64,000 nucleotides of DNA from the NCBI GenBank assembly GCA_003339415.1, contig PDHQ01000006.1:62001-126000 (forward strand). The letters are read 5' to 3'. A program made the position numbers and the translations under genes. The notes beneath the pieces are model-generated. The model saw nothing but the letters and a program-made list of their open reading frames with translations. It did not search any database and was not told where the DNA came from. The stretch is from Ophiocordyceps camponoti-saundersi (nom. inval.). Its lineage: Eukaryota > Ascomycota > Sordariomycetes > Hypocreales > Ophiocordycipitaceae. Every line of letters starts with the position of its first letter. Position 1 is the stretch's first letter. Shown piece after piece: positions 1 through 4,660 of this stretch.

Positions 1-616
1 GCGTTGTCGCGCTTGTCCTTGTGGGTTGAGAACTTCCACGCCTCATCTGCGTTGTCACGCTTCTCAGCAGTGTGAAACCTCCAAGCCTCGTCGGCATTAT
101 CGCGCTTCTCAGCAGTATGGAATCTCCAAGCCTCGTCGGCGTTATCGCGCTTATCCTTATGAGTTGAGAACTTCCAAGCCTCGTCAGCGTTATCGCGCTT
201 CTCAGCAGTGTGAAACTTCCACGCCTCATCGGCAGTGTCGCGCTTCTCCTTGGGGTGAGTCGAGAACTTCCAGGCCTCATCAGCAGTGTCGCGACGCTCC
301 TTGGTGTGAAACTTCCACGCCTCGTCGGCGTTGTCACGACGCTCCTTGGTGTGGAACTTCCAAGCCTCGTCCGCCACGTCACGTTTCTCAGCAGTGTGAA
401 ACCTCCACGCCTCATCCGCGTTATCGCGCTTCTCCTTGGGATGAGTCGAGAACTTCCAAGCCTCGTCGGCGTTGCCACGCTTCTCAGCAGAGTGAAACCT
501 CCACGCTTCGTCGGCGTTATCTCGTTTCTCTGCAGAGTGAAACTTCCACGCCTCGTCCGCCATGTCACGGCGGTCCGCAGAGTGGAACTTCCATGCCTCG
601 TCACTCGTGCTAGCAT
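1..616 (-). repeat. In-frame tandem repeat array of 45/48/51-base units encoding the RiPP cores
   Basis: Minus-strand coding repeats. Units of 45 bases (15 aa, ending HTAEKR or HTKERR) alternate with 48-base (STHKDKR) and 51-base (STHPKEKR) units. Silent and conservative differences between copies show they are not a collapsed perfect repeat. All copies stay in frame, which indicates selection on the encoded peptide. Confidence 0.9.
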
Positions 617-766
617 CTAACAAGGGAAAAATCATCAGACTTGATCCGCAAGAAACAACAACGCTGGTAGATATAGCCAGGCCATGTTTCCCTTACCCGC
701 AACGGGAAGAGCGGTGACGCTCAGAGCCATAAAGGCAAAGACGACTGCGACTTTCTGGCTGTACAT
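1..766 (-). CDS. Kex2-processed repeat precursor peptide of a putative dikaritin-type RiPP (3' end beyond window)
   Basis: Two exons, complement(697..766) and complement(1..616), joined by an 80-base GTAAGG...TTAG intron in correct phase. Exon 1 encodes a signal peptide (MYSQKVAVVFAFMALSVTA). Exon 2 is almost wholly tandem repeats: 13 complete units and the start of a 14th before the window edge. Each unit carries the core D-x-A-D-E-A-W-(K/R)-F, the first two or three residues varying in some copies, then a short linker (HTAE, HSAE, HTKE, STHPKE, STHKD or HSAD) and a dibasic Kex2 site (KR or RR). Units are 15-17 residues. A signal peptide plus Kex2-bounded near-identical repeats is the hallmark of UstA/PhomA/GigA-type precursors, which are cut in the Golgi and then cyclised by UstYa-family oxidases. 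Two UstYa-like genes lie just upstream on the same strand. The core has Trp and Phe but no Tyr, unlike ustiloxin or phomopsin. A pheromone-like precursor is the main alternative, but the neighbours argue against it. Confidence 0.85.
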
Positions 767-2045
767 GATGATTATCAAGTGATGGAGTAGAAGCTTGATG
801 CTGTGAGTTTCCTTGTGAACTGTAATGAGAGTTGGAACCTATGTTGAAAGAAGAGCGGGTTTCTGATCAGGACAAGCCCTTCTTAAAAACAACAGACGAG
901 GACCCCTCTGTGTGAATGAGTCTGACTAGATGTTCTCACCATATCGCCACTTACAACCCTGTTTCCGAAACCACTACTCCAAGACTCTTCTCCTCTCATC
1001 CATGAAGCATGCTCGTCGATCGCCGCCCGCTTCCTAGTTTCCGCTTCTCCGCAACTGCATCTCAAGCCTGGTAATGGCTGACCACCCCCGAAGCCTCGAA
1101 TCCTCCTTTCCATGTGCTGTAACGTCTCTGCGAAGTGCAAAAGACTAGCTCTCACGTCCATCCGCCCGGTTGCGCAGAAGAACGTTCCCTACACACTCGA
1201 TCCACGCCTTGTTTAAACGTGCAGTAGCCGCCGTTCTACAGCAGCAAAGCTTGTTGGCGGCTGGAGATGTGTCGGTCTGATCTGGTAGGAAATCAGGGTC
1301 TCGGCTTCACGGCAGAGTGTGCTGTTGATCACAGTCTCATCGCGGCAGTTCCGCTCGAGAAGGATTCGCTCATGTGAGGTCGGGTAAGCGGGACGGGCTT
1401 TTGGTGGAGAGTTGCTGTCGTTGGCATGCATGTGGCTGCAAGTCATCAGATAGGATACGATCGTCGAACACAGAGTTGAATCCCATGCAGACTAGCGTTG
1501 CAGCACACGAGGACATGCATTGCTTGCCGATGCCGTGCTCGACGGGGGACTGATCCTGTTCCCTCTATGCATGTATGTGTGTGTGTATGTATAGTATGAC
1601 GTCTTCGCGTTATCAAGCATATCCTTTTCATATGCTCTGTTCAGAATACTCCTGGTCATAGGCATTTGACACTGTCGTAAGAAACTAGATAGACTCAAGA
1701 TCTCGTCCTCTGCGTCGGTGATGTTGTCAGCTTACCCGACATTTGGCCTAAGCTTTCTCCCCATGCTCAGAGAGAAGCCGGCCATCCGGGGGCGTTGCAG
1801 AGAGAGACGCCAACTCATTCGTACTCGGCTCATGATATGCTCCAGTTGCCATGCAATAGTTCCTGGACCAGCTTCAAGTCTGCTTCTAGTGCTTCGTAGA
1901 GTTTCTAGAGCAAAAACTAGACACAACACATGCACTGGTAGAACATGCATCACGTAGAGTAGAGCTAGGGCCATACTTAGTCCTGCCTTGAATCTCAAGC
2001 CGATGCTGTGTTTCGAGACATCAAAGCAACTCATCTCATCAAAGC
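767..2045. other. Intergenic, upstream region of the RiPP precursor
   Basis: I see no convincing gene. Short open frames on both strands lack codon bias, splice support or recognisable motifs. A short TG/CA run lies near 1570-1590. The stretch presumably holds the promoter of the precursor gene and the 3' region of the upstream UstYa-like gene. Confidence 0.5.
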
Positions 2046-2774
2046 CTAGTCCTCATCCATACTCGAATTCATCCTTACAGGAACCTCAATCAAGAAGAAG
2101 TGATCCGGAATCGGGTTCCTGATCAGTCGCGAGCAGTGCTTCACATGGTCGAGGCTATCAAACCTCTCCTCCATGACAACCCCCGTCTCGCGCATACGAA
2201 CGTACTTTTGCCAGTAGAAGAGGCAGTGTACGATATGCCAGTCCCTCGACGCCCAGAAAGACCCCCCCGTTTCCCCCAGACCGGCCATCTGACTCGTAGT
2301 GAGCGGTTCAATCCCAGCCTTGTCGGCGAAATAAGACCATTGACCGTTTGGTCCTGGCCCTGATTTGTCGAACTCTGCTGTTAGCTTCTCGTCTCGACAA
2401 TACGGCGGCAGCCATGCCGTGGCCATTGTGTCGTAGACGCAGCCTCGTGCGAGGGCTTCCTTGATGGTGTTGCCGCAGTGGCATGTGTTTCGTCCCGGTT
2501 CTAGAGTCTCGGGGTGGTAGGGATCAGGAAGGGAAGAGGAGAAGAGCCATTGCTGGGCTGTGATGCGTTGAGCTATGGCAAGACATAGCGAGAGAAGGCC
2601 CCAGCTGGCGAGAGCAATGACAATAACGTGGGTAGTTGTGTGTAGAGACGGCCAGTTTCGTCTGCGGCGTGTTGGTTTATGTGTTGCGCCTAGTTCTTCT
2701 TCTGATATGTCCAGATCACTGTCTGCTTTATCCTCGTCGTGTGATAGAAAGGGGACGTTTGATGAAGCCATCAT
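2046..2774 (-). CDS. UstYa-like (DUF3328) membrane protein, divergent
   Basis: A single exon of 242 residues. An N-terminal cytosolic stretch rich in acid, then RRRR, precedes one membrane segment at about residues 49-68. The lumenal part holds two HxxHC motifs, HIVHC at about 180-184 and HVKHC at about 210-214, the signature of the UstYa/DUF3328 family. Members catalyse oxidative cyclisation of fungal RiPP cores (ustiloxin, phomopsin, victorin and others) and are thought to bind metal through these motifs. The protein also has a CHC and other cysteines at about 98-126 and ends only some 28 residues after the second motif. It lies about 1.3 kb upstream of the precursor and points the same way. 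The family call rests on motifs and topology; its substrate is inferred from position. Confidence 0.72.
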   Translation of the reverse strand: MMASSNVPFLSHDEDKADSDLDISEEELGATHKPTRRRRNWPSLHTTTHVIVIALASWGLLSLCLAIAQRITAQQWLFSSSLPDPYHPETLEPGRNTCHCGNTIKEALARGCVYDTMATAWLPPYCRDEKLTAEFDKSGPGPNGQWSYFADKAGIEPLTTSQMAGLGETGGSFWASRDWHIVHCLFYWQKYVRMRETGVVMEERFDSLDHVKHCSRLIRNPIPDHFFLIEVPVRMNSSMDED

Positions 2775-3440
2775 GTTCGTATGTTACGACGACAAGGTAG
2801 AAAACAGTTGAAAAGTCAAGATGTTGATAGCATCCCTTTCTCACTCGAGAAAATGGGTTATAGAGGCCAAACGAAAGGAGCATCCGTTATCACAGACATA
2901 AGGTACATGTAGGTGATGACACTTGCAACGTGATCGACGTCGAAGTTTCCATGTCATGAATTGTGCATGCGTCTATGCCTAAAATCTGACCCGAAGAGCT
3001 GCAGAGTCAACACCCTCCCCCCTTCTGCTTCTTCCCCTCTCTAGTATGGTCAGAACTAGTTCAGGAACAGCAACTGTAGTAGAATGCTAGGTGTAGTAAT
3101 GAGCCTGACATGAGCAAGTTTGAGAAGAAGGAAGCCCTTGATATCAGGAGAAACAGGCCTGTGATAATGATGATGATGATTATGTGCGATTTGAAACTGG
3201 AAACATGCGTTCAGTCTCGCCACTTGCGTCTTTGTAATACTTGTCAGCTGATAGTGCTGGGGTTGGAGGGCGTCATGACACTATTCTATCGAGGAACATG
3301 GGTTTCGCTCATGTTATTCAGATGAAGAAGAAAGACAAGGTAACAAAAACATCTCGAAAAAGCTTCAATTCGAGCAACTACTATTAATAGCATTGAAAGG
3401 ACATCCAGCTCTGTAAAACATCTATAAACCATCGTATCCG
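2775..3440. other. Intergenic between the two UstYa-like genes
   Basis: No gene seen. It holds the 5' region of the downstream UstYa-like gene and the 3' end of the upstream one; a short ATG-repeat (GATGATGATGAT) lies near 3165-3180. Confidence 0.5.
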
Positions 3441-4660
3441 TCACTCATGTTCATGTAAGAGCCCGCCTTTTCCAAGCGGAGCAATGCCCAAGCCGTGACC
3501 ATGACCCGTCGAGTTTTCATAAGGGTTGCCTACACGTATGCAAAGCAGAAAGGGGTTAGAGATGCACCAGCCATACACAGTCAGGGTCTATGCATATTAT
3601 CTCACCAAGAGTTGGATGAACGAGAAGGCCCGGCTCGAAGGGGTCAAACGAATGCTCGGCCATCCATTCGTAGATGGGCTCCCAGACCACACATTGATGC
3701 TTGCCCTTGTCAGTCGACACAGGACCAGGAGAGCTACACATCATGACGGCGTCAGCACTAACATAGAAGAGAGGGGAGATGGAAAACACGAGTTGTTGCA
3801 AACTTACTCGGCAGCCCATTGGATGGGAATGAGGGTTGTGTCAGCGTTACACTGCACATATTGTCGAAGCCAGTCGATACAGTGCTCTGAAGTCGTCAGA
3901 TGCTCGTCAAACCCACAACGACAAGGAAGCGGAGCTAAATGCCGTACTTACCGGTGTGCCGCTTCAAGAGAAAAGTCTCATCCTCGGAAAGGCCGGGGTA
4001 GTAGTGATCGGCGTAGATGGCGTGGTGAAGCCTTTGAACGCAGTGAAGGCCGTGGAAGACGGCGACGGTGGTGTAGTAGCCGCTTCCGTCTGTGAGCTTC
4101 ACGATGGAGTCGTCTCCGGCGTACTGCCCCAGCTCGCTCTCTGGGACGCGAACGTTTTGATCTGAGAGCCGAGAGTGAGAAAGGATTCGCTAGCATGTGA
4201 AGTAGGGGGAGCACGGAGAGAGAAAGACGAACGCTTCATGAGTTTGTCCCATGCGTTTTCGAGACTTTCTCGTGGTGGACCGTTGAACGAGTTTGCTTTG
4301 TGTGGATTGAGAGTCCCGTTGTTCAGATATATGGCTTTGACGTCGAACGGGCGTCCTTCATATGATATGACGTCTCGAAAAGGGGCTTCATCTATGATCA
4401 GTCTGCTATTTCTTTCTCGCGCCGTCTTGAGCGATAGACTCACTTGGATAATGAGGGTCGACCTTTCTCTCGATGGCGAGCCATGTGTATGCGTTAAGTG
4501 ACAAGACCAGAAGGTTGATGGCAAGGAAGACGCAGTGTAAGGCTATACGTGATGTTCGTCGAGGAGGTATGGGAGTCTCATCGAAGTCTGAACTGTCTCT
4601 CGCGGGAGACGAGTCGTGCTCTTTCCATGGTGAGGATTCGATCTTTGAGTATCTGGCCAT
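3441..4660 (-). CDS. UstYa family (DUF3328) oxidative cyclase-like protein
   Basis: Best model has six exons: complement(4391..4233 preceded by 4660..4444, then 4161..3952, about 3902..3808, 3733..3606, 3529..3441), roughly 298 residues. It has an N-terminal cytosolic tail, one membrane helix at about 38-58, then the family's YPNEAPFRD start, WDKLM, a SELG segment, the first metal motif HGLHC at about 162-166, and a second segment ending EHCIDWLRQYVQCNADTT. The order and wording match the UstYa family, which cyclises RiPP cores in the secretory pathway. In the second motif the first His is replaced (TSEHC), unless splicing differs. Introns 1, 2, 4 and 5 join in phase with GT-AG. Intron 3 (donor GTAAGT at 3951) has no AG acceptor that keeps the frame, so that junction is non-canonical, carries an indel, or the gene is decaying. 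Confidence 0.8.

What the first reader, a model, noticed from the sequence alone, without database searches (positions are those of the whole stretch)
1..4660. Putative new dikaritin-type RiPP cluster at the left edge
The sequence shows a signal peptide plus 13 or more Kex2-bounded repeats (core ADEAW(K/R)F) and two co-oriented genes with DUF3328 HxxHC motifs within 4.7 kb. Known families: UstA/PhomA/VicA precursors with UstYa-type oxidases. The core matches none of the published cores I know of (ustiloxin, phomopsin, asperipin, victorin, epichloecyclin). More cluster genes probably lie left of position 1.
Basis: partly seen in the sequence, partly recalled or inferred. Interest (0 to 1): 0.88.

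Follow-up and report, generated by a model that had tools for sequence, protein, structure and literature searches.

The report
Tryptophan-core peptide cluster, ant fungus
A zombie-ant fungus carries a gene for a secreted protein made of 15 near-identical short tryptophan-containing peptides, next to two probable copper enzymes that would chemically modify them; it looks like a new member of a known kind of fungal peptide pathway.

Summary
The window is from the ant pathogen Ophiocordyceps camponoti-saundersi. On the minus strand lie a 6-exon UstYa-family oxidase gene (3441-4660), an intronless, divergent UstYa-like oxidase gene (2046-2774), and a 2-exon precursor gene (766 to 78 bases left of the window), followed by an MFS-type gene. 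The precursor has a signal-like leader and 15 repeats; DEAW(K/R)F is kept in 15 of 15 while synonymous sites vary freely. Each oxidase has a hydrophobic N-terminal helix and two HxxHC motifs on helices, as published for the copper enzyme CctR. The two oxidase families share a contig length in 20 cases. In Metarhizium rileyi a fused gene model puts the UstYa-like enzyme directly upstream of a leader plus EDWKM repeats. So this is very probably a Kex2-processed, oxidase-modified RiPP (dikaritin-like) locus with a Trp/Phe core and no Tyr. Cyclisation, product, expression and function are untested. DUF3328-linked repeat precursors are numerous (1758 of 7878 in one survey) and Trp is not rare in them, so the kind is known; my ten literature searches did not turn up this locus.

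The parts
697..766 (-). Precursor gene, exon 1: start codon and signal-like leader MYSQKVAVVFAFMALSVTALPVA
   Evidence: gene model; hydropathy peak 2.03 at residues 6-24
617..696 (-). Precursor gene, predicted 80-nt intron GTAAGG...TTAG
   Evidence: joins leader and repeat frame without a stop; not checked against RNA
1..616 (-). Precursor gene, exon 2 (continues 78 bases left of position 1, to C659:61922): repeats D-N-A-D-E-A-W-(K/R)-F-... bounded by KR/RR; 15 in all with the part outside the window
2046..2774 (-). UstYa-like (divergent DUF3328-type) oxidase, 242 aa, no intron, hydrophobic segment from residue 50, HIVHC (180) and HVKHC (210)
3441..4660 (-). UstYa-family (PF11807) oxidase, 293 aa, predicted exons 4660-4444, 4391-4233, 4161-3952, 3886-3808, 3733-3606, 3529-3441; HGLHC (162) and HTEHC (194)
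   Evidence: structure modelled on the O. camponoti-floridani relative P0095

Best explanation
A small RiPP locus. The precursor enters the secretory pathway; the two membrane-anchored DUF3328-type copper oxidases, facing the Golgi/vesicle lumen, oxidise the conserved DEAW(K/R)F core (most plausibly at Trp and/or Phe, giving a cross-link or hydroxylation); a Kex2-type protease cuts after KR/RR to free up to 15 near-identical peptides, trimmed to about 13-15 residues; the neighbouring MFS transporter or plain secretion exports the product. Shown: repeats, dibasic sites, conserved core, HxxHC motifs, recurring pairing of the oxidases. Predicted: introns, TM helices, folds. Inferred: Kex2 cutting, copper, oxidation and its site, export, and any role in infection.
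For: 15 dibasic-bounded repeats after a signal-like leader. The core is fixed at the protein level with divergent synonymous codons, so the amino acids, not a young DNA repeat, are kept. Two co-oriented HxxHC oxidases lie within about 4 kb; the UstYa family search matched 7 places in 45.7 Mb, this one included, so chance proximity within 5 kb is roughly 0.15% (crude). The two oxidase families recur together: 20 contig lengths occur in both hit lists, the window's own included (50 of 92 and 50 of 59 hits carried NCBI names); 9 pairs have locus tags differing by one, and three public models run UstYb and UstYa-like together in the window's order (P0004, P0094, P0108). Metarhizium rileyi P0080: UstYa-like enzyme followed by a leader and EDWKMTIET repeats on the same strand. 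Each HxxHC lies on its own helix behind an N-terminal helix in the models, as described for the copper enzyme CctR (PMC12435403, passages).
Against: No expression or mass data. The UstYa-like protein is below the Pfam cut-off (18.8 of 25 bits); 10 of 36 family members match PF11807 at E<=1, and the profile comparison of the two oxidase families gave probability 0.4% and E 0.15, although it aligned both motifs in register. Neither model matched a solved structure at E<=0.001; sequence searches gave no or only chance matches. No Tyr in the core, whereas 65.6% of DUF3328-linked repeats have Tyr; Trp is not enriched near DUF3328 genes (20.5% against 24.5%; PMC7329392 section 7). One-unit similarity between the M. 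rileyi and window repeats is no better than shuffles (770 of 5000 as good). The precursor search scored no relatives at E<=1 among 5311 candidates.
Confidence: 0.8

Rival explanations
1. The precursor is an ordinary Kex2-processed repeat protein (KEP) whose peptides are secreted unmodified, as effectors, hyphal or pheromone-like signals; the oxidases act on something else.
For: 6120 of 7878 KEPs lack DUF3328 neighbours, and Trp is no rarer in them (PMC7329392). The core has no Tyr. Four of six other UstYa regions scanned in this genome showed no dibasic or Tyr/Trp repeat precursor in 8.5-9.9 kb (C280, C104, C201, C659:381-391 kb), so UstYa genes need not serve KEPs.
Against: Two oxidases lie adjacent and co-oriented, and the same UstYa-like gene is followed by a Trp-repeat precursor in M. 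rileyi. No pheromone or other Pfam family on the repeats.
Confidence: 0.13
2. The locus makes a modified peptide that serves the fungus's own development (as reported for N. crassa POI2, a KEP of the ustiloxin type) and not host interaction.
For: POI2 is needed for female structures (PMC7329392 section 9). The oxidase pair also occurs outside insect pathogens, e.g. in Penicillium, Aspergillus, Nemania and Chaetomium.
Against: None direct; the precursor core could not be compared in those species. This concerns function only and shares the mechanism of the best explanation.
Confidence: 0.4
3. The repeat is a structural or cell-wall protein whose dibasic sites are incidental.
For: It is a tandem-repeat protein with a signal-like leader.
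Against: 14 of 14 inter-repeat junctions carry KR or RR, the units are short, and there is no Pfam match. The flanking oxidases would be unexplained.
Confidence: 0.03

Closest known systems
Dikaritins (ustiloxin, phomopsin, asperipin-2a; precursors with UstYa/UstYb-type enzymes)
   Same: Signal plus multi-copy Kex2-bounded cores; DUF3328-type oxidase genes adjacent.
   Different: Core has Trp and Phe, no Tyr; no tyrosinase match on the contig, no S41 peptidase family match in the genome, no methyltransferase among the open frames given to Pfam. One oxidase is below the UstYa Pfam cut-off.
Victorin
   Same: Multi-core precursor probably cut by Kex2; a Phe side chain takes part in the ring (PMC9233826 passages), showing that Tyr is not essential.
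   Different: Different core (recalled) and organism; victorin is chlorinated.
DUF3328-linked KEPs of the fungal survey PMC7329392 (e.g. type P-3, with W)
   Same: KEP with DUF3328 neighbours; 1758 such KEPs counted, W content rate 20.5%.
   Different: P-3 genera are Fonsecaea, Cladophialophora, Galerina, Psilocybe and Coprinellus, none in Hypocreales (recalled). Whether any entry of its supplement equals this core could not be read (no supplement look-ups).
Metarhizium rileyi NOR_08747 (P0080), fused gene model
   Same: UstYa-like enzyme (71% identity over 54% of the query) directly followed by a leader plus EDWKM repeats.
   Different: Repeat spacers have a single R, not KR; one repeat unit is not significantly similar.
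Second UstYa/repeat locus in the same genome (contig C15)
   Same: Many repeats open with (R)DNAE against (R)DNAD here; UstYa matches lie at 3425 bases or less from each other beside it.
   Different: Tyr-Ile containing unit (QSYI), mostly single-R spacers, different oxidases.

Membership tests
Dikaritin / UstYa-type fungal RiPP | Secreted precursor with multiple Kex2 (KR/RR) bounded near-identical cores | tested here: met
   15 repeats, 14 dibasic junctions, leader exon; secretion and cutting predicted only
Dikaritin / UstYa-type fungal RiPP | Adjacent UstYa-family (DUF3328, HxxHC...HxxHC) oxidase gene(s) | tested here: met
   The 3441-4660 gene has two exons over the PF11807 cut-off (41.3 and 32 bits); the second gene has the motif and helix layout but 18.8 bits of 25
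Dikaritin / UstYa-type fungal RiPP | Tyr in the core as cross-link donor (ustiloxin, phomopsin, asperipin) | tested here: not met
   No Tyr in any of 15 repeats. This excludes the Tyr subtype; victorin (Phe) shows that the wider class does not need it
Dikaritin / UstYa-type fungal RiPP | Oxidatively cross-linked (cyclic) mature product | not testable with these tools
   needs mass spectrometry
Dikaritin / UstYa-type fungal RiPP | Accessory genes of ustiloxin/phomopsin type (tyrosinase, S41 peptidase, methyltransferase) | tested here: not met
   PF03572: 0 matches, 0 candidates in the genome (six frames, introns may hide it). PF00264: 6 matches, none on C659. Methyltransferase sought only among the open frames. 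Umemura's text gives asperipin-2a one DUF3328 gene, so small clusters exist
DUF3328 / UstYa protein family (for the 2046-2774 product) | Score over the Pfam PF11807 cut-off | tested here: not met
   18.8 bits against 25
DUF3328 / UstYa protein family (for the 2046-2774 product) | N-terminal TM helix and HxxHC(x)nHxxHC, each motif on a helix (as in CctR) | tested here: met
   Hydropathy peak at residue 50; helices 177-197 and 208-219 carry the motifs at 180 and 210, mean pLDDT 83.9; H, H, C of the first motif invariant and of the second at least 90% in 36 sequences
Fungal alpha-pheromone precursor | Pheromone family match | tested here: not met
   0 Pfam families for the repeat protein

The most novel reading that the evidence does not exclude
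A Trp-centred branch of copper-oxidase RiPPs: a conserved pair of DUF3328-type enzymes, one in a family outside the Pfam definition, jointly oxidises the Trp (with Phe or Met two residues on) of an E-x-W-K-(F/M) core in insect-pathogenic Hypocreales, giving an indole cross-linked or hydroxylated peptide that ant-manipulating Ophiocordyceps release in the host.
Probability: 0.12. Interest if true: 0.85.

Novelty: new member of a known kind. Interest (0 to 1): 0.46.

Why it matters
If true, zombie-ant fungi have a ribosomal peptide product, with many copies per precursor, that the Ophiocordyceps papers I looked into (passages only) do not name. It offers a precise mass-spectrometry target in organisms whose behaviour-changing molecules are mostly unknown. 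The paired oxidases with a Tyr-free core would also test whether this new copper enzyme family acts on Trp.

Tried and rejected
Precursor as database query: 5311 candidates, none at E<=1; the gene seems not to be predicted in the searched protein sets, so the cores of sister ant fungi could not be read. Own-genome search with the repeat: this array and one chance match of E 0.64. Pheromone and cell-wall readings: lowered for lack of any family match. Further cluster enzymes: 40 open frames were given to Pfam, a part of those listed. Left of the precursor they gave MFS_1 (one of three frames over the cut-off) and an FAD_binding_4 oxidase about 11 kb away at C659:50433-51011 with other frames between, not counted in the cluster. 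Right of 4660 they gave no RiPP-type enzyme. Fold searches gave nothing at E<=0.001 for either model, so a DUF3328 structure was not found in that copy. The multi-unit alignments (0 of 2000 and 1 of 2000 shuffles as good) double-count repeats; the one-unit tests replace them: M. rileyi 770 of 5000 shuffles as good (not significant), contig C15 unit 39 of 5000, leader against leader 1 of 5000 (signal peptides share their order by nature, so weak). A dibasic repeat near the UstYa match on contig C22 (SSNVTLHRR) was set aside: the next frame carries HEVGHWFGLLH, a metalloprotease-type zinc motif (the repeat frame itself has no Pfam match).

Literature: ten searches. 'Ophiocordyceps' with 'UstYa' gave 1 paper, on lichens; the passages I saw mention dikaritin clusters of Ophiocordyceps through their methyltransferases. 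The antiSMASH comparison that includes O. camponoti-saundersi, PMC11057048, has neither 'ribosomally' nor 'fungal-RiPP' in its main text. The transcriptome paper PMC7341126 has no 'UstYa' or 'RiPP'. Ten papers were opened, by passages only (PMC12458967, PMC7329392, PMC7099791, PMC6339444, PMC12048977, PMC5624889, PMC7341126, PMC12435403, PMC11057048, PMC9233826), except PMC7329392, of which I also read section 6 part 1 and sections 7 and 9. No supplements.
Full report
Source. The window is G000:C659:62001-126000 of a 45.7-Mb, 733-contig assembly. A database protein on a contig of the same length as C659 (488,045 bases), 100% identical over 70% of the UstYa-like query, is CP533_3436 of Ophiocordyceps camponoti-saundersi (lineage), a member of the O. 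unilateralis ant-pathogen complex (treated as such in PMC11057048, passages).

Observation. I fetched 59 kb to the left and confirmed the overlap. The precursor has exon 1 at 766-697, an 80-nt intron at 696-617, and exon 2 from 616 to C659:61922, which is 78 bases left of the window; 254 residues. After the leader come 15 units, often DNADEAW(K/R)FHTAEKR, with variants ending STHPKEKR, STHKDKR or TKERR; all 14 junctions are KR or RR. DEAW(K/R)F is present in 15 of 15 units, ADEAW(K/R)F in 14 of 15. Over these 14 cores pS is 0.78 and pN 0.025; the two residues before have pS 0.99 and pN 0.20, the two after (15 units) pS 0.59 and pN 0.32. So the core is held far more tightly than the linkers. 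Shuffling the protein never gave more than 3 pieces sharing a 4-mer, against 15 (5000 shuffles).

Oxidases. The gene at 2774-2046 has no intron and encodes 242 residues with HIVHC and HVKHC. The gene at 4660-3441 has six predicted exons with introns of 52-76 nt, one of them with an unusual donor (GTTCGT), and 293 residues with HGLHC and HTEHC. The public annotation fuses the two into one 422-residue protein (P0004). I split it because the upstream gene has its own stop and the downstream gene its own start, and because O. camponoti-floridani and O. unilateralis have two separate proteins. The 293-residue protein has exons over the PF11807 cut-off (pieces); the 242-residue one reaches 18.8 of 25 bits, and 10 of 36 members of its alignment match at E<=1. 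The profile comparison of the two families is not significant (probability 0.4%) though it puts both motifs in register. Structure models (pLDDT 83.9, and 78.3 for the O. camponoti-floridani relative P0095) show a long N-terminal helix and a domain in which each HxxHC sits on its own helix. That is the layout reported for CctR, shown to be a copper- and O2-dependent enzyme with two coppers per monomer, placed in Golgi, endosome and vacuole membranes (PMC12435403, passages). No solved structure matched the models.

Conservation. The UstYa-like query gave 92 relatives, the UstYb query 59. Among the 50 NCBI-named hits of each list, 20 contig lengths occur in both, one being the window's own contig. 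Nine pairs have locus tags that differ by one: O. camponoti-floridani, O. unilateralis, Hirsutella rhossiliensis, Tolypocladium paradoxum, Trichoderma velutinum, Penicillium frequentans, Zasmidium cellare, Xylariales sp. AK1849 and Xylariaceae sp. FL1651. A shared contig length alone does not prove adjacency. Three fused public models (P0004, P0094 of O. camponoti-leonardi, P0108 of Aspergillus carbonarius) show the order UstYb then UstYa-like on one strand, as in the window. The pair is therefore an old module, wider than insect pathogens.

Precursor relatives. The protein search scored none. A gene-model error gives the one link: P0080 of Metarhizium rileyi runs from the UstYa-like enzyme into MHPLKLSYVAVLLACGVRALPTNG followed by three EDWKMTIET repeats. 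Order, strand and Trp-Lys pair agree with the window; the one-unit alignment is not significant on its own. It is a single case: of the 151 proteins held, an internal-repeat scan flagged P0080, the window's own repeat and P0075, whose repeats lie in a His/Glu-rich tail. A second repeat precursor in the same genome, on contig C15 beside two UstYa matches, has ten EPDRHQSYI units, most opening with NAE. Of the six other UstYa regions scanned (8.5 to 9.9 kb each), C15 showed such an array; C22 has a dibasic repeat that I take for the pro-part of a metalloprotease.

Mechanism. The anatomy matches what is published for dikaritins: Golgi targeting, Kex2 cutting, and UstYa/UstYb-type cyclisation (PMC9233826 passages). 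I infer oxidation of Trp and/or Phe, since these, with D, E and A, are the invariant residues and there is no Tyr; Phe is a ring partner in victorin. An MFS-type gene follows the precursor on the same strand, in three open frames at C659:59435-61267, one of them over the MFS_1 cut-off (44.6 bits). No tyrosinase match lies on the contig, no S41 match was found (a six-frame search that introns could defeat), and the 40 open frames given to Pfam had no methyltransferase or P450. The locus looks minimal: precursor, two oxidases, transporter.

Novelty. A survey of 1461 strains lists 7878 Kex2-processed repeat proteins, 1758 with DUF3328 neighbours, W content rate 20.5% in these (PMC7329392, sections 6 part 1, 7 and 9), and 2560 of the 7878 had no homologue at all, so a new core is an ordinary event. 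In the ten searches made and the passages read I saw nothing that describes this locus; supplements were not readable. I file it as a new member of a known kind, with a Tyr-free core and a divergent oxidase as the unusual points.

Noticed in passing
L028:4090-4533 (-) (G000 contig C15), beside UstYa matches at C15:101937-102581 (-) and C15:103881-104162 (+): Second repeat precursor in the same genome: ten EPDRHQSYI units separated by (K)R-(D)NA, with a likely leader exon MRFSTVIVCLPALAFAAPT upstream; a probable Tyr-containing dikaritin-like locus near a contig end. No Pfam match.
   Followed up: partly
window:2046-4660: Public gene model CP533_3436 fuses the two oxidase genes into one 422-residue protein and drops the C-terminus of the upstream and the N-terminus of the downstream one; a similar fusion occurs in O. 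camponoti-leonardi (P0094). The precursor was not found as a predicted protein.
   Followed up: yes
window:20037-20822 (+): 262-residue open frame with a weak match to Enterotoxin_a (19.7 bits, cut-off 21); enterotoxins are reported as over-represented in the secretome specific to ant-infecting Ophiocordyceps (PMC5624889 passages).
   Followed up: no
L029:6066-7372 (+) (contig C22), about 0.9 kb from a UstYa match: Secreted-looking frame with SSNVTLHRR repeats, followed by a frame with HEVGHWFGLLH (metalloprotease-type zinc motif, recalled); probably a protease with a repeated pro-part, not a KEP.
   Followed up: partly
window:9681-11403 (-) and window:15579-16861 (+): Beta-lactamase-family hydrolase with a DUF3471 domain, and a caspase-domain (C14) protein; ordinary neighbours outside the cluster.
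   Followed up: no
G000:C201:427-3655: Two distant relatives of the UstYa-like enzyme (28 and 30% identity) and a PF11807 match within 3.3 kb; no repeat precursor found in the first 9.9 kb of the contig.
   Followed up: partly
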